From: Lentinus brumalis
Lineage: Eukaryota; Basidiomycota; Agaricomycetes; Polyporales; Polyporaceae
Assembly (NCBI GenBank): GCA_001792895.1
Contig: MARA01000019.1
Coordinates: forward strand, 558,001 to 622,000
Direction of reading: 5' to 3'
DNA length: 64,000 nt
Position 1 is the stretch's first letter. Each line of letters begins with the position of its first letter. Below the pieces are notes generated by a model. The model did not search any database. It was not told the origin of the DNA and saw only the letters and a list, made by a program, of their open reading frames with translations. Position numbers and translations under genes: made by a program. Positions 2,067 to 63,420 of the stretch are shown piece after piece.

Positions 2067-2072
2067 TATAAA
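2067..2072 (+). promoter_or_regulatory. TATA box of the first repeat-peptide gene
   Basis: TATAAA lies 61 nt before the start codon at 2128. The paralogous gene has TATATAA at nearly the same distance (57 nt) from its own start, which supports both start choices. Confidence 0.6.
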
Positions 2073-2127: not shown

Positions 2128-2681
2128 ATGAAGTTTACTCACCTCTTCTCCGTGCTCTTGCTTGTCACAGTCCTCGCCATCGTCGACAAGGTTATCCTCC
2201 GTATCCATCACATTACCTGTCCTCCTCCACCATGACTGACCTCTTTGTGTGGCTTTAGTCGATTGCTCAACCCCCCGGCGTCGTCGAACCTGTGACCGAT
2301 GGACGAAGTGTACGTCAGTTTTAGGCTTGTGAACGCTTCGAAGCTCGGTAACTGACGCTCTCTTGTGGCCACCAGGGATACAATCGTCGCGACACAGCGG
2401 AGACCGACGGTCGCAGTGTAGGATTCCTTCCCACAGACCTCCGCTCCCGTATCTCATACATGCACAGGGATATAACCGCCGCTCTACGGAAGAGGAGGAC
2501 GGCCGTAGCGTAGGTGTCCCTTGGACAACTGTCGACCTCATGGCTCACGTTCTGTCGCTGCAGGGGTACAACCGTCGCAACACAGAAGAAGAGGACGGAC
2601 GCAGTGTATGCACGTTTCTGCAAAATATACGGCTCGAACCTAACCGCATCTTTGCGCCAGGGATATAACCGCCGCAACTAA
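2128..2681 (+). CDS. Secreted repeat-peptide precursor 1 (Kex2-type, one repeat per exon)
   Basis: Six exons can be read: 2128-2190, 2259-2309, 2376-2417, 2468-2509, 2564-2605 and 2661-2681. All introns are 50-68 nt, GT..AG and phase 0. The product is 86 aa. Residues 1-21 (starting MKFTHLF) form a signal peptide with a Leu/Val-rich core. A 17-aa leader ending DGRS follows, then three 14-aa repeats, each exactly one 42-nt exon: GYNRRDTAETDGRS, GYNRRSTEEEDGRS and GYNRRNTEEEDGRS. The last exon gives GYNRRN and stop. Arg-Arg is a classical Kex2 site, so secretory-pathway cleavage followed by Kex1-type trimming would give 12-mers such as DTAETDGRSGYN. This mode is known for fungal Kex2-processed repeat proteins and dikaritin RiPPs; I do not recognise this core. 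There is no Cys and no CaaX end, so it is not a basidiomycete mating pheromone. The product's function is unknown. The first donor (GTTATC) is the weakest splice call. Confidence 0.85.
2376..2681 (+). repeat. Array of 42-nt exon repeats in precursor 1
   Basis: Three complete 42-nt exons and one 21-nt terminal exon begin with GGN-TAY-AAY-CGY-CGY. They are separated by unrelated introns of 50-55 nt. Codon third positions differ between units while the amino acids GYNRR and DGRS stay fixed, which indicates selection on the protein. Confidence 0.85.
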
Positions 2682-4375
2682 GTTCTGCCTCATGACGAAA
2701 GACCGGCCACTGTGCCCGATCCAGGTCAGTCTCAGCTCGTCAACTCGCGGACTCCAGGTACGCGGCTAACTCTCCTTCCACCAAGTTGGGACACGGGATC
2801 ATATGGTGGAACGCGTGCTCGAGATGTAAGACTAGTGCACCAGAGAAGTCACCGCACGAATTGATACTATTGAGTGGGCGGACCGTCTGCCCGCCGAAGT
2901 GCAGCGCGGTGTTCCCCGTGCATTCTCGTTTAGTTTCAGGGTACGACTTATGACTCGTCTAGCAGTGCAACGATGAGTTTCTTCAGGAACAAATTGCCGT
3001 CTAGAACTGTGAGTCGCTGAGAGACCGACGAGTTCGATGTACCTAGAAGAGCTGGTTTGATTCCGAGCGTAACTGCGATGTGGCACAGTAATTAAGAACA
3101 TATTTGACTGCAAATGGCCGTGTACTCAGATCATGTAGCACAGACGTCCAGTCACAGGCTGGGAGGAGCGGAAGGGGTTTGAACGAGCTCCTTCGGTGCT
3201 TGCCGGTCGCCCTTCCCAATACGGTAGTTCCATCACAGTTCAGACGCCCGTGTGCACTGCTTGCGCCGGGCGACAAGTTGCTAGCTACTCTCATCTCTCC
3301 TTCCTATCAGGCTATTACCGAGTCTCTTAGATTGTGCCATAGACCTGGCGTCAGCAATACTATTCCCTTAACACAGGAATAAGACCCAGATATCAGAGAC
3401 TTGTCATCGTCTCCATTGCCTACCCATGACAACAGACGACAGGAAGCTGGGCTTGCCGGTTGATATGGTCAGTCGCATTCCCACTACAGATTTGCAGAAT
3501 GTTCAGCTCATATGTATGCAGCTCCTTTCTTTTGTACCCCCGGTATTGAGGGTAAGAATGTAGAGATCATCACCGAAGCGATCGTCTATTTGTGAATCAC
3601 AGCAGGCGCGTCACTTCGTCGCGGATGTCACCCGGAACTTCTCAATCAAACTCTGTTCACTGTGCTATACAAGCTAATCCCACTCCATCTTGTTTCTAAT
3701 TTAGTGGGCTTATCAAGGTCTCGATACCTGGTGCATTTAGCCGGCTGATGACAGAGGACGAGGCCTCGGATGTGGTTGCAGTGCGGCACCCGGACGCTCC
3801 AACGTGGCCTCCTCAAGGTTCGGAGGCTCGTTCACTTTTCCAATACCAAGACTCCATATCTAACCTCTGGGTGGCCTTTGAGGTCCGACAGATGGCAACT
3901 GTATCCGCTTGGAGCTGACGCTGCGTAGCGTTAGCGGCAAATACTGGACGGTAAGGATTCTGTTATTGAAATAGTATAAATTCACACGTACTCCTGCATC
4001 TCAGCCCTTTACCATTTACCTACACCGCAAACTTGCAATCCGCGTCTCTCGCTTCTGAATACATAAGCCCAGATCATGAGTGTAGCACAGGGGGAGAGGA
4101 CCCGTACGAGGCACCGTGCTCGGTGTACTCGAATGGTACCTCGTCTTCCGCGCTTGGACTCCGCTCAAACGGATGGGAACCGCGCCCGCATGTCCAATGA
4201 TTGGCATTTTACCGCAGGAAGGTGACGTAGCACGCTTTTGTTAGCACGCTTCTCACGAAACCTACAGGCCGATGACTTGAATGCAATTGCGCTCAGATAT
4301 AGGTCTTCACCCAAGCTCCGAGATGCAGTGCTGGAAGCTTGAGACTGAAAAAGCTCATGCAGTTAGCAGTGACCG
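2682..4375. other. Spacer between the two peptide genes
   Basis: No gene could be assigned. A frame without an ATG at about 3711-3916 (+), preceded by an AG acceptor-like site, stays open for about 65 codons, starts GLIKVSIPGAFSRLM and ends at a stop. It could be a terminal exon of an unrecognised gene. No further GYNRR repeat was found here. Confidence 0.4.
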
Positions 4376-4409
4376 TAGTTTGCCTCCTGTCATAGTTTGC
4401 CTCCTGTCA
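4376..4409 (+). repeat. 17-bp tandem duplication upstream of precursor 2
   Basis: TAGTTTGCCTCCTGTCA occurs twice in perfect head-to-tail succession, 33 bp before the TATA box of the second peptide gene. It may be a doubled upstream element or simply a local slippage product. Confidence 0.8.
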
Positions 4410-4441
4410 TTACGCGCAGCGTAAATGCAATAGGCTCAGAG

Positions 4442-4448
4442 TATATAA
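4442..4448 (+). promoter_or_regulatory. TATA box of the second repeat-peptide gene
   Basis: TATATAA lies 57 nt before the start at 4499, matching the spacing in the paralogous gene 2.4 kb upstream. Confidence 0.6.
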
Positions 4449-4498
4449 GACCATTGACTGACGACATTTCGGTAGCAACAGATACCTCGAACAGCAAC

Positions 4499-5247
4499 AT
4501 GAAGTTCACTCACGTCCTTCCTTTCTTCCTACTCGCCGCGTTCGCCCTCGTCGACAGAGTATGTCTGCCTCTCTGCAACTCCGACCTGTCCCTGCCCACG
4601 CGGTCTCAGCGCCCATGCACATGGCACTGACTCTCTTTGTACCGCAGTCTACCGCCGCTTCTGTTACCCCGGACATCGGCCGAGGCGTACGTCACGCCAT
4701 GGACATCCGCCAGCCTTCCAGCTGATGTCCTGCGCATTACTAGGGCTACAACCGTCGTGACATACAGGAGACCGACGGCCGCGGTGTAAGTGAATATCTG
4801 TATCTGACTATGCTTTCACTCGTATTGACTCGCAACGCATGACGCACAGGGCTACAACCGCCGCAATGCTGAGGAGGACACCGGCCGCGGAGTGCGTCAA
4901 ACCAATGGACTTCCACGCATCCGCCTATTGATGCCTTCTGCGATACTAGGGCTACAACCGCCGTGTTGCTGAGGACGATGGTGGTAGCGTAGGTGTATTC
5001 CTCCATGTACTGCAGAGTTCATGATCGAATGTCTTCTCCTAGGGATATAACCGTCGTGACGTAGAGGAAACCGACGGCCGCGGTGTAAGTACATATGCTG
5101 ACAATGTGTTCCCAGTAGCTCATCGCACCCACAGGGATACAATCGCCGTGTTGCAGAGGAGGATAGCCGTGGCGTAGGTACCTTCTCCTGCTGGCGATTA
5201 TGATGACTGACCCTCTTGTCCGTCTGATTTGTTAGGGTTACAATTAA
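4499..5247 (+). CDS. Secreted repeat-peptide precursor 2 (Kex2-type, one repeat per exon)
   Basis: Eight phase-0 exons: 4499-4558, 4648-4686, 4744-4785, 4850-4891, 4950-4988, 5043-5084, 5135-5173 and 5236-5247, giving 104 aa. Exon 1 (MKFTHVLPFF...) is a signal peptide paralogous to that of the gene at 2128. Exon 2 is a 13-aa leader ending IGRG. Five single-exon repeats follow: GYNRRDIQETDGRG, GYNRRNAEEDTGRG, GYNRRVAEDDGGS, GYNRRDVEETDGRG and GYNRRVAEEDSRG. The final 12-nt exon encodes only GYN and stop. Cleavage after Arg-Arg and removal of the basic pair would release 11-12-mers that all end GYN. The last unit is encoded already ending at GYN, which supports GYN as the mature C-terminus. The C-terminal MFS gene (5591-7957) converges on it. 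The function is unknown; secretion and processing are inferred from sequence only. Confidence 0.87.
4744..5247 (+). repeat. Array of 39/42-nt exon repeats in precursor 2
   Basis: Five full repeat exons (42, 42, 39, 42, 39 nt) and a 12-nt terminal one. Units 1 and 4 are close (DIQETDGRG and DVEETDGRG, both followed by a GTAAGT donor). Units 3 and 5 are close (VAE..., both followed by GTAGGT). This suggests duplication of multi-exon blocks including their introns. Confidence 0.8.
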
Positions 5248-5590: not shown

Positions 5591-7957
5591 TCAAGACTCA
5601 GCAACCGCTCCCTTCAACTCGGTACTCCCACCCTCAGCTATCTTATCTTGACTTCCCAGACCCTTCTCCGAGTCGCTCTCCAGACCCTTGGCCTCTTTGT
5701 CCTTGAGACCCCACTGCTCGTCGAGCGACTCGCGCAAAGTCTCCTCACGCATCGGGAGACACGTCAGGATCCCGACGCCCGCGATGCCAAGCATCGTCTT
5801 CCAGATGACTTGCGTCGCGTTCGCGAAGGCAACCTGCACTTCGCGACGAAGTTCTGGGTCAAGGCCCCGGATGTCTGGGATGATGGCGTACGCAAGCTGT
5901 ACACCTTGCGGGAGGGTCGCGACGTAGGAGGGCGGAAGGTCCTTGAGGAGGATATTCTGCAGGATCGTTCCGCCGATGATGATGCCCCAGCTCTACCGAC
6001 GCGAAGCAATAAGTGAGCATACTGATGAAAGGGTGAAGGAGCGCATACCTGAGCGAAACGACGGGTAAACGTGAAGAACGCGAGCGCGTGCGCATTGTTG
6101 GATACAGGGAGCGGGGCTAGGATGGGGAACTGCGTGCCGACCCAGACGATCCCGAGGCCGATCCCGAGCGGGATCTGCGAGCAGATGTACTGCGCGCGAG
6201 TGGAGTCGGCATCGAGGCGCGTGATGGCTCCGAAGCCGATGAGAGTGATCGCCCATCCGATGTAGTTCTGCGGGCGGTACTTCTTGAGAGCCTTGACGGA
6301 GATGCCAGTCGCGAGAGCGGAGAAGGGGATGGTGAAAGTGATGGGGAAGATGTCCACTCCGGACCCGATGGCGGACGCGTTCTGCACGGCTTGGAAGTAT
6401 ACGGGCATGTAGTCTGCACCACGTACCACAACTCCAAACTTAACCATGATACTAGGATACGCTAGAGTTACTCACAGATCGCTGCCAGAGAGATGATACC
6501 ATGGAAGAACGTCCCCATGTATCCGCTCAACGTCGTCGGGCTGGAGAAGAAGTGGCTGGGGACCTGAAGAGACAACGAGGTGAGTTTAATCGAAGACTCG
6601 GACTCGGAGGTGACGAACGACCAATGGAAACTCACAGTTGCGCCCTTGATCCAATACCTTTCAGCGACTAAGAAGAATCCGATGCCGACAGCTCCGATGA
6701 TCATGGGTGCGAGTACATTTGCCGAGTCCCACGGGAACCTGAGTCCGCCCCAGGTGAACGCTAGAGCAAGAGACACCGTGCTCCCGACGATAATGGTTAT
6801 ACCGCTGTCGACACACACATCAGTCCCTACCACTACAGAATGAACGGGACAAGAGAGAGACATACATCCAATCCATTTGGCGGAGCTTCTCTTTCAGACT
6901 CGTCTTCGGTGCACGGACCTTGAGGAACACGGAGGTGAGGACCATAGCGATGCCGCAAAGGGGAAGATTCAGGAAGAAGAGCCATCTCCAGGCGCCCGAG
7001 TTCGCTATGGCGCCGCCAATTGGTGGGCCTATCGCGCTAGCCGGCAGTCAGACAAACATACAGCTACTCATATTGGGACGACATACCAGCCAATTGCCCA
7101 GACCCTGCAACATAGCAGTACGCTAGTCAGCACGACTTGCACCCCGAGAGGAGCTGAAGCGCTGCTTACGACACGACGATGCCTTGGAACTTCCCTCGCT
7201 CTGGAAGTGGAACGAGGTCGGCGTACACAATCTCGGTAACTGCGAGACACCCGCCACCGCCGAAACCCTGGATGGCTAAAGATCGGTGAGTAACATGCGA
7301 CACCATAGAGAAGGCACTGTCATAGATAAGAATGGTTCCTAGCAAACGGTAGCACTGTCTCGTGGATCGCGCAGAGACATAAGATTCGCCCTGACCGATA
7401 GATTCACCCCGAAGCTGCATGCAAAGAAGCGGGAGTGCCGCAAAATTTTGCTGAGCGCGCAGTAGATACCACCACAGTACAGGAGCACTCTCGAGCCGAA
7501 AAGGAGCAAGCTTACCTCGCCCGGCGATGAGCATGTTCATGTTCTGTGCAGCTCCCGAGATGGCGGATCCCAGCGCGAAAATAAACACAAAGGCCAGAAG
7601 AACCGGTTTGCGGCCAAACCCGGAGACAAGGTCTCCGACCAGAGGTACGATTGCGGTAGATGCGATGGTGTACGCGCTTCCAGCCCAGATGAAGTCCGTT
7701 CCGTTAAGGTGGCTCACGATCGTCGGGAGAGCAGTTGAGACCGCCATCTGCGGGAGTCCGAGACGACTTCAGTGGACTAATTTCGCACCCCGTCTGGTTC
7801 ACTTACCAAATCCAGCACAGACAACATGTCTATCACCAGGTTCGAGACATAGACCATCCAAAAGTCGAAGCCGCGCGTCGGTGAAGAGCTACAGTTGATG
7901 ATGGTCAGTTTTGCCTACATGAAGGCCGTAGGATACACACCTGGCATCGTTCTCCAT
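5591..7957 (-). CDS. MFS drug/metabolite exporter (DHA2-like)
   Basis: Major facilitator of the 14-helix H+-antiporter type, expected in the plasma or vacuolar membrane. Exons read on the minus strand include 7941-7957, 7807-7888, 7516-7747, 7170-7275, 7087-7104 and 6866-7036, then further exons down to the stop at 5591. The predicted N-terminus is MENDASSSPTRGFDFW. Recognisable segments are SVLDL/AVSTALPTIVSHLNG, the helix 2-3 loop GDLVSGFGRKP, GFGGGGCLAVTEIVYADLVP with PERGKFQG, and the helix-5 motif GPPIGGAIANSGAWRWLFF. Later helices include FTWGG.RFPW and YMPVYFQAVQNASAIGSG. The hydrophilic C-tail is rich in Glu/Lys. Its stop is 344 bp from the peptide precursor at 4499, and it is divergent from the P450, so a role in exporting a locally made product is plausible but unproven. 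The 17-nt first exon is the least certain part. Confidence 0.88.
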
Positions 7958-35995: not shown

Positions 35996-38900
35996 ATGGC
36001 AACCCACGCGTCAGAGCGAAAGCGCAGCAGAGAAGCCGCCATGGGCGAATCTACGCGCGATGCCACCTCTGCGGCAAAGGATATTGCGGCTAGAGCAACG
36101 GGTATGGTTGTACCGGGGCTGACAAGAGCAACTGCGATTAACACACAATTTAACATACAAACACCAACGGATGATACACATGGAAATCGGACGATGCGCC
36201 TCGGGTTGCGGGAGAGACCAGTCGTGCGTGATGCCCGCCAACTGGACGATGAAGCGCAACCTGATAGCGGAGGCATTCACCAGGAGACCCCTAATGAAGG
36301 AGGACAACCTGGTGCGATAGACGAAACGACTGACCAGGACAACACTACGAGACAGAGAACGACTAAGCGGAAACGCACGAGAGGGACATTGAAGCTAGCC
36401 ACCTTGAATATGCGGGGATACGGCAGGCCAAGCCCTGGAGGCCCGACGGAGAAATGGATGTATATCAACCAAGTACTGAGAGATAGCAAAATCGCAGTCC
36501 TCGCACTGCAGGAAACGCACCTAACAACAGACCGAATTACGATGCTCAACACTTTCTTTGCTGCCACGATGCTGGTACTGGGAAGCCCGGACCCAGCGAA
36601 TGAGACAGGCGCGAGAGGAGTCGCATTCGCGATCAATAAGAGACTAGTCGCGGTGGACTCGATACGTATGACTGAACTAGACGGAGGACGAGCTGCATGC
36701 CTGGAAATACCGTGGGCGAATGGGAGGAACCTGAAGATCGTTAACATCTATGCGCCCAACGATGCGGGAGAAAATGCCTCCTTCTGGGAGCGACGCACCC
36801 TAGACTCAGCTGAACGACGCGTCACACGTCCTGACATAGTACTGGGTGACTTTAACGTAGTGGAAGAAAGCAGGGACAGACAGCCTGCGCGGCGGGATGC
36901 GAACGAACCTGTCGCCGCACTGCGGGGGTATCGAGTGCGGAACGATCTAGTAGACGGATGGAGAGCACGAGAACCGACGGAAAGAAAGTACACGTACCTG
37001 CAACTCAGCACGGGAAGCCAGTCCAGGATAGACCGGATATACGTGCGACGGGAACATATGGATACAGTTACGGACTGGGAGGTTGCGGGACCAGGCTTTG
37101 TAACTGATCACCGTCTGGTCTCGTGTAGAATCACGAACGCGGGTCTGCCCTACCATGGGACTGGCCGATGGGCGATGCCTCAGGCCCTCCTCACGGACAC
37201 ACACTTCCTGTCAACGATGCGAGAGCTAGGCATGGAGTTCCAAGCGAAACTCAGCGAAATACAAGTAAGGACAGAAAGGGAAAACCCCCAGACGGCGCAC
37301 CTTGCCTTCAAAACGAAGCTCAGAGATGCGGCACGAGAACGCGCCAAGAAGTGTATCCCAATGCTAGACAGGAAGATTGCTGCGATAAAGGACGACATTA
37401 AAGAAATGGCGAATCGGGTGAACATACGAGACGAGACACTCACCCTGAACCTCGCAATACTGCAGGAAAAACTGGTCGAACTTGAAACGAAACGTTTTGG
37501 ATCGCAGAGACAGAGAGTCGCGGCGAACGACTGGGCCCGCGGGGAGACGATATGCAGATACTGGACGCGTCTCAATGCGCAGCCCATGCCGAGTACTGTC
37601 ATCCGCCAACTAAAGGAAGTGAGACCAGCTGGAGTGACTCGATACTCCGAGCGATCTGAAGATATGGCCCGCATTGCAAAGGAACACTACGACGGGCTCC
37701 AAGCTGACCCCGAGCTGGACCGGGAAAAGCAAAACGAGCTAACCATGGAAGTCCTCCGTGCAGTACAGGCCCGCCTCGACGAAAGAGAAGCAGAACGCCT
37801 GGGGGAGGACATACAACAAGCCGAAGTTGCGAGAGCTATAAAGGAATCAGCAAACGGGAAATCCCCGGGATTGGATGGCCTGCCCACGGAGGTCTGGAAG
37901 ATGTACCTGCACTGGTATGCACGAGACACCGCAAAGGAGAAACCGGCATTCGATATCGCTGCAGCTCTGGCAGCGGTCTACGATGATGTAGCAAAGTTCG
38001 GCCCGACCGAGGAGTCGACGTTCTCTGAGGGTTGGATATGCCCTATATACAAGCTAAAGAAGGATCAGCGAGAGATTGTCAATTATAGACCCATAACCTT
38101 GCTAAACTCGGACTACAAGATAATGACGCGTGCCCTGGCGATGCGAGTTGCGCAAGTCGCCCCGCGCCTTATCCATCCAGACCAAGCTGGCTTCGTGCCT
38201 GGACGACAAATCTTCAGCCACATAAAGCTAACGAAGCTGCTGATCGACTATGCAGAAGCTGAAGAGGAGAACGGAATGATCGTCGCCCTTGACCAGGAAA
38301 AGGCTTATGACCGGATTGACCATCAGTATCTCTGGGACGTCCTCAGGGCCATGAGGTTCCCGGAGGCCTTCATTGTAACTGTCCGACATCTCTACCAAAG
38401 AGCGGTCAGCGTGGTGATAGTCAATGGAGTAAAGAGTGACCAATTCAGAATAACACGTGGAGTGCGGCAAGGGGACCCGATCTCCTGCCTCCTGTTTGAT
38501 CTTGCAATTGAGCCGCTCGCGACCATGATACGGAGCTCGACGCTACGAGGCTTCGACATCCCTGGTATAACAGACAGACTAGTCACCACGCTGTTTGCGG
38601 ATGACACCATGGCGTATCTGCACTGTACGGACAACTACGCCACCCTGGAATCCATCCTATCAACGTGGTGTGCGGCCTCCAGAGCGAAGTTCAACGTCGA
38701 CAAGACTGAGTTTGTTCCAGTGGGCACCCCGGAATATAGAGATGACGTCGCGACGGGGCGATCCGACGCTGTAATTGCGAGGTCCCTGCCCGCTGACGCG
38801 AAAATAGTGAAGGACGGTGCCGCAATCAGATCGCTAGGCTCATGGATAGGGAATGGGACTGACCCCGTTGAGCCCTGGCTGCGGATCCTTGAGATAACCC

Positions 38901-41221
38901 AGAGCAGACTCGACCATTGGGCGCGGCGGAGACCAACGATGTACGGACGCAAACTGGTGGTCGGGATGGAAGTGGGTGGGAGAACCCAATTCCTTGCTCG
39001 AGCACAAGGAATGCCAGAGTCAGTGGAGCAGCGCTTCAAGAATATGATATCTGAATTCATCTGGGGAGGGAAGGCGACCTCGCCGGTCTCAAGAGACATG
39101 CTCGAACGCCCTGTAAGAGAAGGGGGACTGAATCTCCTCAACATTGTCACCCGCAACGAAGCGATCGATCTCGCCTGGACGCGCGAGTACCTTACCCTTG
39201 GCCCTACAAGGCCGACGTGGGCTTTCTTGGCGGATGCACTGATTGCTAGAGCGGTAATGGCAACAGACCGCAATGTCGACCAAGCGGCACGAATAAACTG
39301 TTTCTTGCAAACATGGAATGTCAGTTCGCGGAAGGGAGCGAAACTGCCAGAAGACATGAGGAGGATGATCAAGACTGCTCACAAATATGCAGTCACAGTC
39401 GACGCACCGAACCCGGCGAAAGAGCTACAGCATGCGATGCCGATCTGGTACCACCTTGGGAAGGGAGAAGGCAGGAGTGTGGCAAATACGAAATCAAATC
39501 GCTGTTTGCGAGAACACCACGAGGTAGCCACCGTTCTCGATGGGAGGCGGCTGCTGACGCGTCTGGGGGATGCCTCCCATAGAGACCGAGCCACGTGTGA
39601 ATGCACGGACTGCAAGACGGACAGAGAAGAGAAAGGCTGCACTAACCCGCATGCGTGCGTAACGGCTGCTAGGAAGATGATTGCGAGCCTAGTCCCGAGA
39701 TGGAACCCGATAGCTGTCGAGCCAAGAGACGGGCTCACGCTAACTGCGCGGCGCCTCAGAACGAACGTTGAAGCGCGAGCACGAAAAGACCGTATCCTGT
39801 TCAACCCGACGATAACGGACGGACCTGAGCTGAGGACGGTGCTGAGAGCCTTCACCAGGACCGGCAGCGACGGCCTGAGTGCGAATCGTATCGTTCGACG
39901 GCCCGTACGGTCCTTTGCTGTGGCTGAGGAGCAAGTAGAAGTTTTCACGGATGGCTCCTGTGAAAGGAACGGCATGGCAAACGCAAAAGCAGGGGCAGGA
40001 GCATGGTATGGTGACGCAGACCCGCGCAACGCTGCCCTTGCTGTCCCAGGCCCCATGCAGTCAAACCAGACGGCGGAGATGTACGCGGTGGAGCACGTAG
40101 TAGAGGTGACGCCGCCCTTTGCCCCGCTACACATCGTCTCGGACTCGAAATACGTGGTAGATGGACTGACGATTTACCTGCCGGAGTGGGAAAGGAAAGG
40201 ATGGCTGGGAGTCGCAAATGCAGAAGTAATCAGACGGCTGGCCGCCAAACTGAGGAAACGATCGGCGCCCACAACCCTTCGCTGGGTTAAAGGGCACGCG
40301 GAGAACCGGGGCAACGAAGGTGCAGATGCTTTGGCGAAAGCAGGGTTGCGCAAGGACGTAGCCCTTCCCCTGAAACCTACCCCAACGGAGTTCCTGCGAA
40401 ACGGAGTCGCCCTACAGGCATTGACACAGAAACGTGCGTACCTGGGAATCATGCAGGAGAAAGGACGCCCAGATAGACCGTCCACGGAGCGGATGATAAT
40501 GCGAGTACAAGCGGCCGTCGAGCACGAGCACGGTGAGATGCCCACGGCGGCAGCTCTATGGAAGGGAATCCGGCATAGAGATGTCGCCCGAAAGCACCGT
40601 GACTTCTGGTGGAGAGCAATGCACGACTCCCTCAGAATCGGGAGGTACTGGGAGAATATCCCCAACTATGAGATCAGAGCGATATGCGGCGTATGTGGAG
40701 CTACAGAAACGCTTGATCATATACTCACCGAATGTGAAGCGCCGGGGCAAGCGGAGGTCTGGCGGCTTGCGCAGGCCGCGCTCGCAAGGAAAGGTCTCCA
40801 AGTACGCGACCTATCCCTAGGAACCATCCTCGGTGCAGTGGCGACGACCCTGGAGGGATCTACTTCTCGACCGGTACGGAAGGCGAGAGCGCGATTGTAC
40901 CGTGTCACGATCATGGAATCGGCGCACCTTATATGGGCCCTGCGCTGCCAACGAGTTATTGAGTACGGTAATGAACCGACACTCTGGAAATCTGAAGCGG
41001 AAATACGTACACGTTGGCAGGCTGCTATGAAACGGAGACTGAAGATGGACTACGCCCTAACAGCACACCGCTTTGGTAAGAAAGCCTTGGACCTGGCGCT
41101 TGTCCGGGAAACCTGGGAAGGAGTGCTCCCTGGCGAGCAAAGCTCTTCGAGCATGACGAGTAGTATCCCGGGTGGTTTAGTAGGTAGTGTGAGGAATCTC
41201 CTGCCCCTCGGGGTGGGGTGA
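35996..41221 (+). CDS. LINE 1 ORF2: endonuclease, reverse transcriptase, RNase H
   Basis: Intact 1741-aa polyprotein carrying out target-primed reverse transcription. An apurinic-type endonuclease spans about residues 130-375 (KLATLNMRG, LALQETHL, DIVLGDFNVVEE, TDHRLVSCRI). Reverse transcriptase lies at about 600-900, with NGKSPGLDGLPTEVW, RPITLLNSDYKI, LDQEKAYDRIDHQYLW, GVRQGDPISCLLFDLAIEPL and the catalytic FADD box (TLFADDTMAYLH, about residue 866). RNase H lies at about 1315-1455, with VFTDGSCERNG, QTAEMYAVEHV, IVSDSKYVVDG and WVKGHAENRGNEGADALAK. A C-terminal CCHC-type motif reads CGVCGATETLDHILTEC. All catalytic residues expected from the families appear present and no stop interrupts the frame, so the element could be active. 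Confidence 0.95.
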   Translation: MATHASERKRSREAAMGESTRDATSAAKDIAARATGMVVPGLTRATAINTQFNIQTPTDDTHGNRTMRLGLRERPVVRDARQLDDEAQPDSGGIHQETPNEGGQPGAIDETTDQDNTTRQRTTKRKRTRGTLKLATLNMRGYGRPSPGGPTEKWMYINQVLRDSKIAVLALQETHLTTDRITMLNTFFAATMLVLGSPDPANETGARGVAFAINKRLVAVDSIRMTELDGGRAACLEIPWANGRNLKIVNIYAPNDAGENASFWERRTLDSAERRVTRPDIVLGDFNVVEESRDRQPARRDANEPVAALRGYRVRNDLVDGWRAREPTERKYTYLQLSTGSQSRIDRIYVRREHMDTVTDWEVAGPGFVTDHRLVSCRITNAGLPYHGTGRWAMPQALLTDTHFLSTMRELGMEFQAKLSEIQVRTERENPQTAHLAFKTKLRDAARERAKKCIPMLDRKIAAIKDDIKEMANRVNIRDETLTLNLAILQEKLVELETKRFGSQRQRVAANDWARGETICRYWTRLNAQPMPSTVIRQLKEVRPAGVTRYSERSEDMARIAKEHYDGLQADPELDREKQNELTMEVLRAVQARLDEREAERLGEDIQQAEVARAIKESANGKSPGLDGLPTEVWKMYLHWYARDTAKEKPAFDIAAALAAVYDDVAKFGPTEESTFSEGWICPIYKLKKDQREIVNYRPITLLNSDYKIMTRALAMRVAQVAPRLIHPDQAGFVPGRQIFSHIKLTKLLIDYAEAEEENGMIVALDQEKAYDRIDHQYLWDVLRAMRFPEAFIVTVRHLYQRAVSVVIVNGVKSDQFRITRGVRQGDPISCLLFDLAIEPLATMIRSSTLRGFDIPGITDRLVTTLFADDTMAYLHCTDNYATLESILSTWCAASRAKFNVDKTEFVPVGTPEYRDDVATGRSDAVIARSLPADAKIVKDGAAIRSLGSWIGNGTDPVEPWLRILEITQSRLDHWARRRPTMYGRKLVVGMEVGGRTQFLARAQGMPESVEQRFKNMISEFIWGGKATSPVSRDMLERPVREGGLNLLNIVTRNEAIDLAWTREYLTLGPTRPTWAFLADALIARAVMATDRNVDQAARINCFLQTWNVSSRKGAKLPEDMRRMIKTAHKYAVTVDAPNPAKELQHAMPIWYHLGKGEGRSVANTKSNRCLREHHEVATVLDGRRLLTRLGDASHRDRATCECTDCKTDREEKGCTNPHACVTAARKMIASLVPRWNPIAVEPRDGLTLTARRLRTNVEARARKDRILFNPTITDGPELRTVLRAFTRTGSDGLSANRIVRRPVRSFAVAEEQVEVFTDGSCERNGMANAKAGAGAWYGDADPRNAALAVPGPMQSNQTAEMYAVEHVVEVTPPFAPLHIVSDSKYVVDGLTIYLPEWERKGWLGVANAEVIRRLAAKLRKRSAPTTLRWVKGHAENRGNEGADALAKAGLRKDVALPLKPTPTEFLRNGVALQALTQKRAYLGIMQEKGRPDRPSTERMIMRVQAAVEHEHGEMPTAAALWKGIRHRDVARKHRDFWWRAMHDSLRIGRYWENIPNYEIRAICGVCGATETLDHILTECEAPGQAEVWRLAQAALARKGLQVRDLSLGTILGAVATTLEGSTSRPVRKARARLYRVTIMESAHLIWALRCQRVIEYGNEPTLWKSEAEIRTRWQAAMKRRLKMDYALTAHRFGKKALDLALVRETWEGVLPGEQSSSSMTSSIPGGLVGSVRNLLPLGVG

Positions 41222-58968: not shown

Positions 58969-61900
58969 TCAAGCACCGGCGTGATTGAAGAAACGGTTCT
59001 CGCGAACCATCTCGAATTGAAGTTCGTAGTCGTAGCGCGGGGACTCGGCGTCCCACGTCGCAGGATTGCAGGTGACGCAGCGGGGGTCGTAGTCCGTTTC
59101 GTGACACACCGCGAAGGTGAAAGAGCCGGGGAAGGCGCGGAGCCATTGGGAGATCAGGGGGAAGGGGTCGAGGGCCTCGGTGAAGAGGCGGAAGGGGATG
59201 CGATCCGGGGACGTGAGGTCGAACCAGCTGCACTCCTCGACGATGTGGAGGCGTGTCTGCAGCCCGCCCACCCAGCAGTGGCAGTGGGTCGGGTTGTCGG
59301 GGTGGAATCGCACGCGGTATTCGCCCGTGGGTGCGTGCCCGGTGAGGAAGCGGATGGCGCGAGCGGTCAGGGCAGTACCCTCGAAGTGCGTGAGCGGGAA
59401 CTTGCCCGTGTGGGTGACAACGCGAAGCGCGTCGGAGTCCGGCCACGAGCTGCCCCAGTACGCGTCCCGTTTGCGGCGGTACTTGTAGTTCGGGCAGTCG
59501 CCGCCCGGGCAGGGCAGTTCGAGTGGGTGGGAGTGCGGTGGCGGCGTGCCGATGTGAGCGGCCGTGCGCCAGGACGCGAGCGCGTCCGCCTTCGCCGCGG
59601 CCCGTAGAGAGAGGTAGGAGCGGAGGCTGGTGCCGTCGTCCGCCGCGGCACCCTTGACGTCCTCGTCGATGAGTTCGTTGTAGCGGATGCCGGTGTGGGA
59701 TGGGATCCAGTGCAGCTCCACGCGGTGTTGTGGTGCCGCGTCGAGCCACTGGTTGAGGATGGTGCAGGTGCGTACGGAGACAGACTGCTGTCCGTGCACC
59801 GTAGTCTTGAAGATCGTCTCCAGGGCCGAGCGGCTGTCCCCGAAGACGTGGATGGTGCCCGCACAGTGGCGGGCTGAGATGGAGAACGCGAACCCGAGGG
59901 CGATCATCTCAGCGTCGTAGCTGTGGCAATCGCCCTGGGGACGCACATGACGGTGCTGCAAGCGGCCGTGGTGGTAGATGTGCACGCCGGCGGCGGATTG
60001 TCGGTGCGTGCGGTCGACGCTGCCGTCCGTGAAGCATGTGTAGGCCGTGTCGTCTGCCAGAGCGGCGTCGATGCGCGGCGTGAGGGACGTGCGGACCCAG
60101 GCCTCGAGCTCGTCCGAGTTCTTTTTCTTCGGGGCGTCGAGGTGCATCACGATGCGCTGCTCGAAGTCAGCGCGGTCTGTGAGCCGTTCGCCTGGGCGGC
60201 AGATCGGTGCGTAGAGGTCAAAGCGTTCCGTGACAGTGTTGACGTCCGCGGCGGCGAGAGCCGTAGGGAGGGAGGCAGCCGGGCCGGTGAGGCGGACAGG
60301 GAAGCGCGGGAGGATGGGGACCCCGTCGACTGACACGTCGCTGCGGACGGCCAGATAGAGCGCGGCAACGGGGTGTGATTGCGGAAGGGTGGTGATGCGG
60401 GCATAGTACCGCTTGCAGAGCTTGAGGATCTGGTCGCCGATGGGCATGAGCCCGCCGAACGCTTGCAGTGCGCCTGCGGGCGACGTGCGGAACGCTCCAG
60501 TTATCCACCGGGCGGCGGCGTTGTGTGCGAGGCGGAGCGGCTTCATGCGCTCCTTGGTGCGGGTGTGGTACCACGCCTGGCATCCGTAGGTCATAAGTGG
60601 GACCACACAGGAGATGTAGAGCTGGCGCTTCTGCCGCGGAGACAGGCCACGCTCCGAGTTGCCGAGCGAGAGCATGGCGCGGACGGTGTTCAAGGCCGAC
60701 TGTGCGTAGTGCTTGATGTGCGCCGTGAAGGTCAGCGCAGGGTCGTAGAAGATGCCCAGGTACCGCCAGACCGCAAGAGCGTCCAAGCGGATGGTGTCGG
60801 TGAGCTGAAGGGGCGCAGCGGACTGATACTGCGCCCACCAGATCATGCGAGGGTGGTCAGGAGGCGCAGCGCGGGGCTTCGGCGGTGGGAAGTGACAGTA
60901 CTCGGTCTTGTCATGCTCGATGACAAGACCGAGGCGGGTGAGCTGCACGACGCAGCCGCGGTACGACGTGCGCAGGCGGTTGTGGACGTCGTCCGTGGTG
61001 GCAGCCGTGCTGACGAGCAGTCCGTCGTCGACATAGAAGGTGAGGGGTGTGCGGGGCGGGGAGTCCGCTTCGACGGGACAGAGGACATGCAGCGCGGGGG
61101 AGAGATAGATGTTGGTCAATACCGGAGACAGCGCTGAGCCCTGGCCGGCGCCGACGCCCGGTGCCGCGTAGGTGCGTTCTGAGGTGCGCGTGCCCCAGAC
61201 GAAGCGAGTGGAGCGGTTGAGGAGGTAGGAGCGGAAGAAGTTCTGGTACGCTCCAGCAAAGCCATAGCGTGCCAGAATGCGGATGAGCATGTCATGCTGC
61301 ATCGAGGGAAAGAACTGCGCAACGTCAAAGGCCAGGCAGCCCGTGACGAGGCGGTTCTTCCAGCCTGATCGGATGTGGTGCGTGAGTGCGACAGCTGCGT
61401 CGACAGTCGACCGTTGTTTGCAGCCGCCCATCTGGTTGGGGTGAAGGAGTTGCAGGGCGTTGCAGTCGAAGTGTAGGCGTTCAGCCAGCATCCGCTCGCA
61501 TAGCTTGCCGATGCAGCTGAGCAGGACGATGGGCCGGTAAGCCTTGACGCGGGAGTAGTCGGGCTTGTGCGGCTTGGGGATGATGACGGAGACTGCCGTC
61601 TTGAATGCCTCTGGCCAGTGCCCAAGCCGCAGGCAGGCATTGAAGAGCTCGAGCAGCACGTCCGTGACGTCGTGCGTGATCTCCCCGGTATCGTCCTTGA
61701 AGCCGGGGAGCCGGGTGAGGGCGCGGATGTGCATCCAGCGCACATGGTCGCCACCGGGCGAGGAGTTCGGCGCGGTTTTGAGCTGATCCAGAAGTTCAGC
61801 GCGGGAGAAGGGGGTGAACGGGCGGGTGGGTGGCTGCGGGACAGCAGGCTCGTCGAGAATGGAGTGGTCGACAGGCCGGTCCACAGCCGAGTGGAAGTTC

Positions 61901-63420
61901 CGGTGTAGAGCGTCGAAGAGCTCCGCGTCAGAGGTGACAGCGCGACCCTGGTCGACGATGGTGGTAGTGGTTGGCAGCGGACGCGGCCGCGTCCAGGACA
62001 TGAGGTCCCAGACGCGCCGCTGGGTGTCGGCAACCTCGACGATTTGGCCGTCGAAGAATGTGCGTTTGGCGGCCTTGGCGGCGGACCGCATGCGGTGTCG
62101 GGCGTCGCGCAGCGCTCTTGTTGAGGCGGCTGCCCGGGCCCGAAGCGCGACGGTGTAGAAGTCGAGGATGGCGGTCTGCGTCGCAGCATCGCAGACGAGG
62201 CCGTCGTCATCGGGGAAGATGGAGAGCGCGTCGTGCGCTACACGGCGGGCGTCCGGCGAGGCGAGGTGCCAGGATGGCTCGCGAGCCAGGAGAGAGGCTG
62301 CGGTGTCCTCGGCAGTGGCGTGGTCGAGTATGACGCGGCGCAGAGATGAGCGGGCGATATTGAGGTCGCGCGCGTAGGACCGGTCGTCCAGGGCAGCCCA
62401 CGCCCGGGATGCAGACGTACAGGACCCGTCCCACCAGCGCCGAGAGCGGTCGCAGATGTCCGGGACCACTGCATTGCCATTCCAAGCCCAGGCGAAGGCA
62501 GACATGAGGCGGTTGACGCGGAGGTCAAGCTCGTCGACAGAGTCGATGCGGGCGGGTGAGACGAAGATCATGTCGTAGAACACATCTTCGACGAACTCGG
62601 CATTGAGCTCGCTGTTGCGAGGGCTGATGGTGGCCGTGTGCTCGCCCGCTGCCCGCATGAACGGAACGCGGGCGAGGAGGGGTGCGTGGTCGGAACCGAG
62701 CCGCCAGTGACTGCGGACGGCCACTTCCAAGTCTTCACCGGCCGGCCCGAAGACGAGGTCAATGACAGAGCGGCGGAGCGTGAGGTTGTGTGGAAAATGG
62801 GTGGGCGTGTTGGCCGGAGAGAGGAGGACGTGCCCCAGTGCCATGGAGAGCTCCACGACCTCCTGAACGCGTGCCGCAGAGGACGTCTGGTCAGGTCGGA
62901 GGCGGGAGTCCCACAGAAGAGCGTGAGTGTTGAAGTCTCCGCCGCAGAGGTCGATGCCGGCCAGGGCGTCGGGCTGCGATAGGAGGTATGAGACGGCGGC
63001 ATTGTCGGTGTCGTTGTAGACATTGAGGATGTCGATGGTCGCGACACCAGGGTGGAGGGAGACCGCGACGCGCATCGCATCGCGATGTTTGATTTCACTC
63101 GCCAAGCGAGCTGCAGCTCGAGGCCAGCGGGAGCGGTTGATATATACGACGACGCGGGCCGCGTACTGAGGTGAGACGAGCGTCCACTTTGGGTGGTGCT
63201 GCGTTCCTAGGAGGTTGTTAGCATCGTCGACGCGCTCATGCGGGCCGAGGGCAGAGCGCGCCGACACAGATGTGACTTTGATGATACCGTAGTATGGTTC
63301 CTGCACGCAGAGAACGTCCACTTTATCTGAGAAGAAGTCCAGGGCGGCCGAAGCCACCGCAGGAGAGTGATTGACATTAAAGAACGCCACATTGATACAA
63401 TGCTCGCCCGGTGTGATCAT
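58969..63420 (-). CDS. LINE 2 ORF2: endonuclease, reverse transcriptase, RNase H
   Basis: Intact 1483-aa polyprotein. The endonuclease begins at about residue 8 (INVAFFNVNHS) with VLCVQEPYYG, GGDFNTHALLWD and GSDHAPLLARV. Reverse transcriptase motifs include NSSPGGDHVRWMHI, RPIVLLSCIGKLCERMLAER, HPNQMGGCKQRSTVDAAVAL, AFDVAQFFPSMQHDMLIRIL, GVGAGQGSALSPVLTNIYLS and the catalytic FYVDDGLL at about residue 790. RNase H starts at about residue 1125: CFTDGSVDRTHRQSAAG, SYDAEMIALGFAF, VFGDSRSALETIF and HWIPSHTGIRYNELIDEDVK. A C-terminal Cys/His motif reads HCHCWVGGLQTRLHIVEEC. All expected catalytic positions are present. The start at 63420 is 9 bp after the ORF1 stop, which suggests reinitiation or coupled translation. 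Confidence 0.95.
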   Translation of the reverse strand: MITPGEHCINVAFFNVNHSPAVASAALDFFSDKVDVLCVQEPYYGIIKVTSVSARSALGPHERVDDANNLLGTQHHPKWTLVSPQYAARVVVYINRSRWPRAAARLASEIKHRDAMRVAVSLHPGVATIDILNVYNDTDNAAVSYLLSQPDALAGIDLCGGDFNTHALLWDSRLRPDQTSSAARVQEVVELSMALGHVLLSPANTPTHFPHNLTLRRSVIDLVFGPAGEDLEVAVRSHWRLGSDHAPLLARVPFMRAAGEHTATISPRNSELNAEFVEDVFYDMIFVSPARIDSVDELDLRVNRLMSAFAWAWNGNAVVPDICDRSRRWWDGSCTSASRAWAALDDRSYARDLNIARSSLRRVILDHATAEDTAASLLAREPSWHLASPDARRVAHDALSIFPDDDGLVCDAATQTAILDFYTVALRARAAASTRALRDARHRMRSAAKAAKRTFFDGQIVEVADTQRRVWDLMSWTRPRPLPTTTTIVDQGRAVTSDAELFDALHRNFHSAVDRPVDHSILDEPAVPQPPTRPFTPFSRAELLDQLKTAPNSSPGGDHVRWMHIRALTRLPGFKDDTGEITHDVTDVLLELFNACLRLGHWPEAFKTAVSVIIPKPHKPDYSRVKAYRPIVLLSCIGKLCERMLAERLHFDCNALQLLHPNQMGGCKQRSTVDAAVALTHHIRSGWKNRLVTGCLAFDVAQFFPSMQHDMLIRILARYGFAGAYQNFFRSYLLNRSTRFVWGTRTSERTYAAPGVGAGQGSALSPVLTNIYLSPALHVLCPVEADSPPRTPLTFYVDDGLLVSTAATTDDVHNRLRTSYRGCVVQLTRLGLVIEHDKTEYCHFPPPKPRAAPPDHPRMIWWAQYQSAAPLQLTDTIRLDALAVWRYLGIFYDPALTFTAHIKHYAQSALNTVRAMLSLGNSERGLSPRQKRQLYISCVVPLMTYGCQAWYHTRTKERMKPLRLAHNAAARWITGAFRTSPAGALQAFGGLMPIGDQILKLCKRYYARITTLPQSHPVAALYLAVRSDVSVDGVPILPRFPVRLTGPAASLPTALAAADVNTVTERFDLYAPICRPGERLTDRADFEQRIVMHLDAPKKKNSDELEAWVRTSLTPRIDAALADDTAYTCFTDGSVDRTHRQSAAGVHIYHHGRLQHRHVRPQGDCHSYDAEMIALGFAFSISARHCAGTIHVFGDSRSALETIFKTTVHGQQSVSVRTCTILNQWLDAAPQHRVELHWIPSHTGIRYNELIDEDVKGAAADDGTSLRSYLSLRAAAKADALASWRTAAHIGTPPPHSHPLELPCPGGDCPNYKYRRKRDAYWGSSWPDSDALRVVTHTGKFPLTHFEGTALTARAIRFLTGHAPTGEYRVRFHPDNPTHCHCWVGGLQTRLHIVEECSWFDLTSPDRIPFRLFTEALDPFPLISQWLRAFPGSFTFAVCHETDYDPRCVTCNPATWDAESPRYDYELQFEMVRENRFFNHAGA

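What the first reader, a model, noticed from the sequence alone, without database searches (positions are those of the whole stretch)
2128..5247. Two tandem genes for secreted repeat peptides with one GYNRR repeat per exon
Seen: two paralogous genes, each with a signal-peptide exon, a leader exon and 3 or 5 repeat exons of exactly 42 or 39 nt, all phase 0. Every repeat exon begins GYNRR. Known: fungal Kex2-processed repeat proteins release peptides by cleavage at Lys/Arg-Arg, and dikaritin RiPPs use such precursors. Inference: the genes release families of 11-12-residue peptides ending GYN. I know no described fungal peptide with this core, nor a precursor with a strict one-exon-one-peptide layout.
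Basis: partly seen in the sequence, partly recalled or inferred. Interest (0 to 1): 0.93.

Follow-up and report, generated by a model that had tools for sequence, protein, structure and literature searches.

The report
Fungal secreted peptides resembling plant peptides
Two neighbouring genes of a mushroom-forming fungus encode chains of short secreted peptides ending in Gly-Tyr-Asn, and much the same ending recurs in small repeat proteins of many other fungi and of flowering plants, which raises the untested possibility that fungi imitate a plant signal.

Summary
Two paralogous genes (2128-2681, 4499-5247) have phase-0 micro-exons, one 39- or 42-nt repeat period each. A public Polyporus arcularius protein differs from gene A at one residue and Lentinus brumalis has a close gene B relative, so the exon chains are very probably real. 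GYNRR varies only by synonymous codons (75 to 0). Kex2-type release of 11-12-residue acidic peptides ending GYN is likely from the anatomy but not shown. It does not look like a dikaritin locus: 14 UstYa matches in the genome, none on this contig.

The conserved unit is [D]GR[GS]GYN, spanning the splice junction. It occurs in all 67 named fungal hits (30 of 60 ascomycete ones end at it) and in 39 of 40 plant hits, from Amborella to rice, willow and oak. Gene A shares AETDGRSGYN with a willow protein. I found no printed description. Leading named role, unproven: imitation of a plant secreted peptide. Against it: many fungal members lack a signal peptide or dibasic sites, the plant proteins grade into the Pfam glycine-rich protein family, and short motifs converge. 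New variant of Kex2-processed repeat proteins.

The parts
2067..2072 (+). TATA-box-like TATAAA, 61 bases before the ATG of gene A
   Evidence: script
2128..2190 (+). gene A exon 1: MKFTHLFSVLLLVTVLAIVDK, signal-peptide exon
   Evidence: AlphaFold2 of the P. arcularius ortholog gives one helix 4-23, low confidence after it
2259..2309 (+). gene A exon 2: leader SIAQPPGVVEPVTDGRS
2376..2417 (+). gene A repeat exon GYNRRDTAETDGRS (42 nt)
2468..2509 (+). gene A repeat exon GYNRRSTEEEDGRS (42 nt)
2564..2605 (+). gene A repeat exon GYNRRNTEEEDGRS (42 nt)
2661..2681 (+). gene A last exon GYNRRN-stop (21 nt)
4442..4447 (+). TATA-box-like TATATA, 57 bases before the ATG of gene B
   Evidence: script
4499..4558 (+). 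gene B exon 1: MKFTHVLPFFLLAAFALVDR, signal-peptide exon
4648..4686 (+). gene B exon 2: leader STAASVTPDIGRG
4744..4785 (+). gene B repeat exon GYNRRDIQETDGRG (42 nt)
4850..4891 (+). gene B repeat exon GYNRRNAEEDTGRG (42 nt)
4950..4988 (+). gene B repeat exon GYNRRVAEDDGGS (39 nt)
5043..5084 (+). gene B repeat exon GYNRRDVEETDGRG (42 nt)
5135..5173 (+). gene B repeat exon GYNRRVAEEDSRG (39 nt)
5236..5247 (+). gene B last exon GYN-stop (12 nt): the last peptide ends at GYN without trimming

Best explanation
Genes A and B encode small secreted, largely disordered precursors. After signal-peptide removal a Kex2-type protease cuts after each RR, and a Kex1-type carboxypeptidase removes RR (inferred). 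This leaves acidic linear peptides: DTAETDGRSGYN, STEEEDGRSGYN and NTEEEDGRSGYN from A; DIQETDGRGGYN, NAEEDTGRGGYN, VAEDDGGSGYN, DVEETDGRGGYN and VAEEDSRGGYN from B; plus one N-terminal peptide from each. The functional part is the C-terminal GR[GS]GYN (degenerate at two of the six B sites) with a free Asn, the element shared with other fungi. The peptides act outside the cell as signals. Shown: gene anatomy, selection on GYNRR, close relatives, the wide motif family, no UstYa match on the contig. Inferred: processing (about 0.8), signalling (about 0.55), and, as the single most likely named role, imitation of a plant secreted peptide with the same core (about 0.3).
For: Phase-0 exons with signal-peptide exon. 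75 synonymous to 0 replacement codon differences in GYNRR, against 33 to 57 in the remaining codons of the six 42-nt repeats. Close relatives in two polypores. GR[GS]GYN followed by KR/RR in 21 of 60 named ascomycete and 3 of 7 named basidiomycete database proteins. Gene A shares the 12-mers EEEDGRSGYNRR and VTDGRSGYNRRD with Colletotrichum proteins P0144 and P0136. One Kex2-type P-domain match in the genome. Model of the ortholog disordered beyond the signal helix, mean pLDDT 53.5. Kex2 cutting of agaricomycete repeat precursors into detectable linear peptides is published (PMC9769878; abstract and part 1 of 3 of Results read). For the plant-directed clause: gene A's repeat DTAETDGRSGYN contains AETDGRSGYN, also present in Salix protein P0060 (script one search lists the same 10-mer in P0036 and P0060).
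Against: No transcript or peptide evidence here. The single P-domain match reads through one TGA and one TAA in a six-frame search that ignores introns, so an intact gene was not confirmed. 4 of 4 named Suillus proteins have no dibasic site after the motif. In 45 of 219 proteins (8 named ascomycete, 37 unnamed) the motif starts within 20 residues of Met, leaving no room for a normal signal peptide; only 37 of 60 ascomycete hits have a hydrophobic N-terminus. So neither secretion nor Kex2 processing is common to the motif. Published C. cinerea kep knockouts showed no detectable phenotype (PMC9769878 abstract).
Confidence: 0.72

Rival explanations
1. A fungus-intrinsic motif: GR[GS]GYN serves a fungal purpose (a signal between fungal cells, or an intracellular role in the members without signal peptide), and the plant proteins arrived at the same short core independently.
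For: Members without room for a signal peptide: 45 of 219, 38 of them ending exactly at the motif; the named ones include Aureobasidium and Hortaea proteins. Plant and fungal precursors share no evident leader similarity (alignments, read by eye). The longest exact plant-fungus match is 11 residues, in one Salix and one Cytospora protein. The plant proteins grade into the Pfam glycine-rich protein family: 7 of 9 tested match PF07172 at E up to 1, 1 of 9 over its cut-off, and glycine-rich composition favours convergence.
Against: Four grass proteins share DGRSGYNSV with 18 fungal proteins, more than the core itself. Of 108 hits with organism names, 107 are plants or fungi; the other, a Streptomyces protein (E 4.6), does contain the core.
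Confidence: 0.37
2. A repetitive secreted protein that is not cut and acts as a surface or matrix component; RR is incidental.
For: Suillus and many ascomycete members lack dibasic sites after the motif. Kex2-cut repellent peptides of Ustilago are structural (PMC4617103, passages).
Against: RR is invariant in all repeats of both genes, by synonymous codons only. The proteins are short, the predicted peptides acidic, and the ortholog model disordered. A 12-nt exon ends gene B precisely at GYN.
Confidence: 0.12
3. A dikaritin-type RiPP: the Tyr of each core is cross-linked by UstYa enzymes.
For: Signal peptide, Kex2 spacing and a Tyr in each repeat; UstYa genes exist in this genome (14 matches).
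Against: None of the 14 matches, a list that may be a lower bound, lies on contig C48. The 30 window reading frames scanned with Pfam show an MFS transporter next door but no UstYa or tyrosinase domain (other frames not scanned).
Confidence: 0.05
4. A chance or mis-annotated exon chain.
For: No transcript data were available.
Against: 10 AG|GYN sites against 0.09 expected; database relatives; codon pattern.
Confidence: 0.02

Closest known systems
Kex2-processed repeat proteins (KEPs) of fungi
   Same: Signal peptide, tandem near-identical repeats, dibasic RR between cores, short secreted product (PMC6339444, PMC7329392, PMC9769878: abstracts, one section or part each, and passages).
   Different: A term search for GYN in the main texts of these three papers gave no such core (the one hit is 'trichogynes'); supplementary tables could not be read. 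One repeat period per phase-0 micro-exon: 'exon' does not occur in the three texts and 'intron' once, in a cDNA method. Related motif proteins without Kex2 sites or signal peptide exist.
Dikaritin RiPPs (ustiloxin, phomopsin type)
   Same: Kex2-spaced repeats containing Tyr in a secreted precursor.
   Different: No UstYa match on the contig; the published ustiloxin/phomopsin core is EDYXI (PMC6339444 section 10).
Plant GR[GS]GYN proteins, annotated 'glycine-rich protein' or uncharacterised; marginal to Pfam GRP (PF07172)
   Same: Hydrophobic N-terminus in 34 of the 39 with the motif (heuristic), 1-6 copies of GR[GS]GYN, 21 of 40 ending exactly at the motif.
   Different: No evident leader similarity; KR/RR after the motif in only 2 of 40; RRxL before the first motif in 21 of 39, which resembles the site-1-protease site of RALF precursors (recalled). 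PF07172 is reached weakly: 1 of 9 tested over its cut-off. No function known to me.
Microbial mimics of plant peptides (CLE-, RALF-, SCOOP-, PSY-like)
   Same: Short core shared with a host secreted peptide family.
   Different: No receptor, no response data; the GYN family is not in the table of known mimics in PMC13157962 (section 15 read).
Plant PEP peptides, and soybean GmPep914
   Same: Pep has a G-[RK]-x-G-x-x-N ending (recalled); a C-terminal Asn is conserved in CLE, GLV and PEP families (PMC13157962, passage). GmPep914 is recalled as containing RGGNY.
   Different: Spacing and order differ from GR[GS]GYN. GmPROPEP914 has no obvious signal sequence (PMC6547358 section 16). Kinship untested.

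Membership tests
Kex2-processed repeat proteins (KEPs) | N-terminal signal peptide | tested here: met
   Hydrophobic N-terminal stretch in both proteins by heuristic; predicted helix 4-23 in the ortholog of A. No SignalP run.
[quoted passage not shown]
   4 GYNRR in gene A (4 of 4 GYN), 5 in gene B (5 of 6 GYN; the sixth is followed by the stop).
Kex2-processed repeat proteins (KEPs) | Actual cleavage by Kex2 and release of peptides | not testable with these tools
   Needs peptidomics. One P-domain match exists in the genome.
Dikaritin RiPPs | UstYa gene beside the precursor gene | tested here: not met
   14 UstYa matches in the genome, none on C48 (counts may be lower bounds).
Dikaritin RiPPs | Cyclised, Tyr-modified core | not testable with these tools
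   Needs mass spectrometry.
DUF3602 (PF12223), considered from a recalled GRGG motif | Match to the Pfam model | tested here: inconclusive
   Genes A, B and 8 relatives give no PF12223 match up to E 10. The genome search was negative, but its controls were silent too.
Mimic of a plant peptide family | Shared core with a plant secreted family | tested here: met
   GR[GS]GYN in 39 of 40 plant hits; DGRSGYNSV in 4 grass and 18 fungal proteins; AETDGRSGYN in Salix P0060, P. arcularius P0036 and gene A. Hits were selected by shared words, so presence of the core among hits is partly by construction.
Mimic of a plant peptide family | Perception by a plant receptor | not testable with these tools
   No receptor is known to me for the plant proteins.
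Plant glycine-rich proteins (PF07172) | Match to the Pfam model | tested here: not met
   Genes A and B: no PF07172 match up to E 10. Of 9 plant relatives, 7 match at E up to 1 and 1 passes the cut-off; Colletotrichum P0126 has none.
Poplar RISP | Small cationic protein, 60-residue mature form, four cysteines | tested here: not met
   Genes A and B have no cysteine and their RR-delimited peptides are acidic; RISP features from the search listing and passages of PMC3975113 and PMC4756128.

The most novel reading that the evidence does not exclude
GR[GS]GYN is the active end of an uncharacterised angiosperm secreted peptide group, and fungi of both Ascomycota and Basidiomycota (Colletotrichum, Diaporthe, root endophytes, Suillus, polypores) have built the same ending into their own repeat precursors, so that a Kex2 precursor releases many copies of a ligand addressed to a plant receptor. 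If so, the window gene pair belongs to a cross-kingdom peptide language spanning pathogens, mycorrhizal fungi and wood decayers.
Probability: 0.3. Interest if true: 0.93.

Novelty: new variant of a known kind. Interest (0 to 1): 0.77.

Why it matters
Functions of fungal KEPs are largely unknown (PMC9769878 abstract). A motif shared with small plant proteins gives one of them a concrete, cheap test: synthetic 12-mers on plant tissue. If plants respond, both an uncharacterised plant peptide group and its fungal counterpart come into view together; if not, the family still offers a conserved fungal peptide ending whose secreted and apparently non-secreted forms can be compared. The phase-0 one-period-per-exon layout would also let exon skipping change peptide number without breaking the frame.

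Tried and rejected
Dikaritin locus: rejected, no UstYa match on the contig. DUF3602 kinship: no Pfam match, and the genome search cannot decide because its controls were silent. More family members in this genome: a contiguous GR[GSR]GYN pattern gave 3 forward and 3 reverse matches against 2 and 4 for the reversed control, so no sign of intron-free members. AG|GYNKR gave 0, control 1 and 2. GYNRR gave 50 forward and 54 reverse against 26 and 33 for the control; of the 100 of 104 places listed, the only ones closer than 1 kb to each other are the nine of this locus, and 46 are one 14-mer, GGATACAATCGAAG (counted by hand). A protein search of the genome gave 3 matches, all in these genes, but the best E was only 0.07, so its power is low. 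RISP as the plant counterpart: rejected. GmPep914: precursor paper not held, so kinship stays a recalled lead. A paper on rice immune peptides was not held. A search for an each-exon repeat layout in Kex2 precursors gave 2 papers and nothing on point. GRGG/fungi/small protein/repeat motif gave 23 papers; none of the 20 listed contains GRGG. Searches on PEP-type peptides and on Kex2 with peptide mimics were used only to find reviews.

The second and third scored only the 7993 and 7992 candidates sharing most words, and the second listed 120 of 173 hits. Plant or fungus labels were assigned by me from the organism names printed; the N-terminal test is a hydrophobicity heuristic, and in Colletotrichum the stretch may be a membrane anchor.

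The Pfam link of the plant proteins is new; for it I lowered the plant-mimic odds from 0.33 to 0.30 and raised the fungus-intrinsic rival from 0.35 to 0.37.
Full report
What is there. The window lies on contig C48 (bases 558001-622000) of a 53.4-Mb genome in 136 contigs. Two genes on the + strand, 1.8 kb apart, encode an 86-aa and a 104-aa protein when spliced by eye. Both start MKFTH, have a hydrophobic first exon, a short leader exon ending DGRS or GRG, then 42- or 39-nt exons; the 12 introns are all in phase 0 and 50-89 nt long. Each gene has a TATA-like box 57-61 bases before its ATG. Gene A: MKFTHLFSVLLLVTVLAIVDK|SIAQPPGVVEPVTDGRS|GYNRRDTAETDGRS|GYNRRSTEEEDGRS|GYNRRNTEEEDGRS|GYNRRN. Gene B: MKFTHVLPFFLLAAFALVDR|STAASVTPDIGRG|GYNRRDIQETDGRG|GYNRRNAEEDTGRG|GYNRRVAEDDGGS|GYNRRDVEETDGRG|GYNRRVAEEDSRG|GYN. 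All 4 GYN of gene A and 4 of 6 of gene B lie in a strict GR[GS]GYN.

Is it real? Yes. Ten AG|GYN sites lie on the + strand of the window, all at these exon starts; none on the - strand; Markov resamples give 0.09 on average. The GYNRR codons vary only synonymously across repeats: 75 pairwise codon differences, all synonymous, while in the remaining codons of the six 42-nt repeats 33 are synonymous and 57 not. These pairwise counts are not independent events, but the contrast is plain. A public protein of Polyporus arcularius has the length of gene A and differs at one residue; a Lentinus brumalis protein follows gene B and then departs at two places, apparently at introns. The organism of the window is therefore probably a close polypore (P. 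arcularius is in Polyporaceae); I did not identify it.

Exon and peptide. The exon is one repeat period, but it starts with the last three residues of one peptide. Each peptide such as STEEEDGRSGYN is made from two exons. Skipping any one repeat exon removes one period and still leaves complete peptides.

Processing. RR follows every GYN except the last in gene B, where a 12-nt exon encodes GYN and the stop. Kex2 cutting and trimming of the basic pair is established for yeast alpha-factor (recalled), and Kex2 cutting is published for mushroom KEPs (PMC9769878; abstract and part 1 of 3 of Results read). Here it is inferred. The genome holds one match to the P domain of Kex2-type proteases; two stop codons are read through in that match, and the search ignores introns, so the gene itself was not verified. 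AlphaFold2 on the P. arcularius ortholog with 11 sequences shows only the signal helix; the rest is of low confidence (mean pLDDT 53.5), as expected of a precursor to be cut.

Relatives. Three searches of 5.8 billion proteins gave 219 distinct listed proteins at E up to 10. The conserved element is not GYNRR but GR[GS]GYN, preceded by D in 146 of 239 ascomycete sites. In fungi three architectures occur: (i) hydrophobic N-terminus with KR/RR after the motif (the window genes; Phialocephala, Cadophora, Heliocybe; Colletotrichum with a more internal hydrophobic stretch); (ii) hydrophobic N-terminus without dibasic sites (Suillus with single basic residues, Diaporthe with SV); (iii) motif within 20 residues of Met, hence no room for a normal signal peptide: 45 of the 219, of which 8 are named ascomycetes (Aureobasidium, Hortaea, Hyaloscypha, Colletotrichum, Cytospora) and 37 unnamed; 38 of the 45 end exactly at the motif. 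Counts: hydrophobic N-terminus in 37 of 60 ascomycete, 6 of 7 basidiomycete and 39 of 111 unnamed hits; end exactly at the motif in 30 of 60, 1 of 7 and 70 of 111; of the 30 ascomycete ones only 13 have the hydrophobic N-terminus. Gene A shares EEEDGRSGYNRR with one Colletotrichum protein and VTDGRSGYNRRD with another.

Plants. The 40 plant hits are 58-140 aa long. Of the 39 with the motif, 34 have a hydrophobic N-terminus by the same rule; 21 of 40 end exactly at the motif; copies number 1-6. They come from Amborella (P0215, E 3.4 but with the motif at its end), Acorus, grasses including rice, Salicaceae, Euphorbiaceae, Fagales, Theobroma, Pistacia, Oleaceae and others. Several lie on contigs of tens of megabases, so contamination by fungi is unlikely. 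Outside the motif glycine is scarce in the five plant examples checked (2-12%). Yet 9 of the 40 carry the Pfam glycine-rich family PF07172 in the precomputed column, and of 9 plant proteins that I scanned 7 match it at E up to 1, one over its cut-off. The plant proteins are thus at the edge of a known plant family, not outside all families. In 21 of 39 an RRxL precedes the first motif, like the S1P site of RALF precursors (recalled). Four grass proteins share the 9-mer DGRSGYNSV with 18 fungal proteins (Colletotrichum, Diaporthe, Cytospora, Schizothecium); Salix P0060 shares AETDGRSGYNA with a Cytospora protein and AETDGRSGYN with P. arcularius P0036 and hence with gene A, whose repeat reads DTAETDGRSGYN.

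How far can this be pushed? The hits were chosen by shared words, so the presence of the core among them is partly built in. What is not built in: that 107 of 108 named hits are plants or fungi, that 34 of 39 plant proteins look secreted, and that about half of the plant and ascomycete proteins stop right at GYN. The C-terminal Asn is conserved in several plant peptide families, probably for receptor binding (PMC13157962, passage). A reading in which fungal peptides imitate a plant peptide fits the many plant-associated genera in the list (lifestyles recalled, not tested). It is weakened by the members without signal peptide, by genera such as Hortaea, by wood decayers that feed on dead tissue, by the lack of evident leader similarity, by the brevity of the motif and by the glycine-rich-protein link. 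I put it at about 0.3, a little below a fungus-intrinsic role.

Surroundings. Pfam scans of 30 reading frames of the window show an MFS transporter at 5.8-7.7 kb on the - strand, an isoprenylcysteine methyltransferase-like frame at 15.9-16.5 kb, a short-chain dehydrogenase near 18 kb, two LINE-type retroelements (36.0-41.2 and 59.0-63.4 kb), a methyltransferase, an acyl transferase and an aminotransferase. No UstYa domain was among them, and the 14 UstYa matches of the genome are on other contigs.

Literature. 'GRGGYN' occurs in 4 papers of the library, on nuclear localisation, delivery or phase transition by title. 'GRSGYN', 'DGRGGY', 'DGRSGY', 'GRGGYNK', 'GRGGYNS' and 'RGGYNKR' occur in none. 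'RSGYN' or 'RGGYN' occur in 42; none of the 40 listed names a fungal or plant secreted peptide in its title, and they were not opened. The main texts of the three KEP papers have no GYN core by term search. A 2025 review of plant peptide hormones has no GRGG or GRSG in the 300,000 of 467,095 characters held. Supplementary tables, most subscription papers and preprints could not be searched, so 'undescribed' is limited to these searches.

Verdict. The gene pair is a sound new pair of KEP-type precursors with an unusual exon layout, in a wider and, as far as searched, unnamed GR[GS]GYN group that crosses from fungi to plants. Processing is likely; function is open, with a clear test.

Noticed in passing
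P0050, P0060, P0106, P0135, P0215 and other plant proteins: Small plant proteins with 1-6 copies of GR[GS]GYN, 21 of 40 ending exactly at the motif and 21 of 39 with RRxL before it; annotated only as glycine-rich or uncharacterised, marginal to Pfam PF07172.
   Followed up: partly
P0024, P0027, P0058, P0062, P0071, P0076: Proteins with the motif within 20 residues of Met and at the very C-terminus, without room for a signal peptide; the named ones are fungal; role unknown.
   Followed up: partly
P0126, P0128, P0136, P0139, P0140, P0143-P0145, P0149, P0151, P0157, P0179, P0185: Proteins of 13 Colletotrichum species with GRSGYN repeats; those read alternate DGRSGYNRREEE-like and DGRSGYNSV-like units behind a hydrophobic stretch. 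Two are annotated as collagen triple helix repeat.
   Followed up: partly
window 5767-7747, - strand: MFS transporter frames directly downstream of gene B, convergent to it.
   Followed up: no
window 35996-41218 (+) and 58972-63420 (-): Two long open frames with endonuclease, reverse transcriptase and RNase H domains: LINE-type retroelements.
   Followed up: no
genome-wide: The 14-mer GGATACAATCGAAG makes up 46 of the 100 listed pattern places, often as pairs about 4.8-5.5 or 7.3-7.4 kb apart, as if part of a mobile element.
   Followed up: no
G000 C46:714960-803606: Six of the 14 UstYa matches lie within about 90 kb on one contig, a candidate UstYa-type cluster unrelated to this locus.
   Followed up: no
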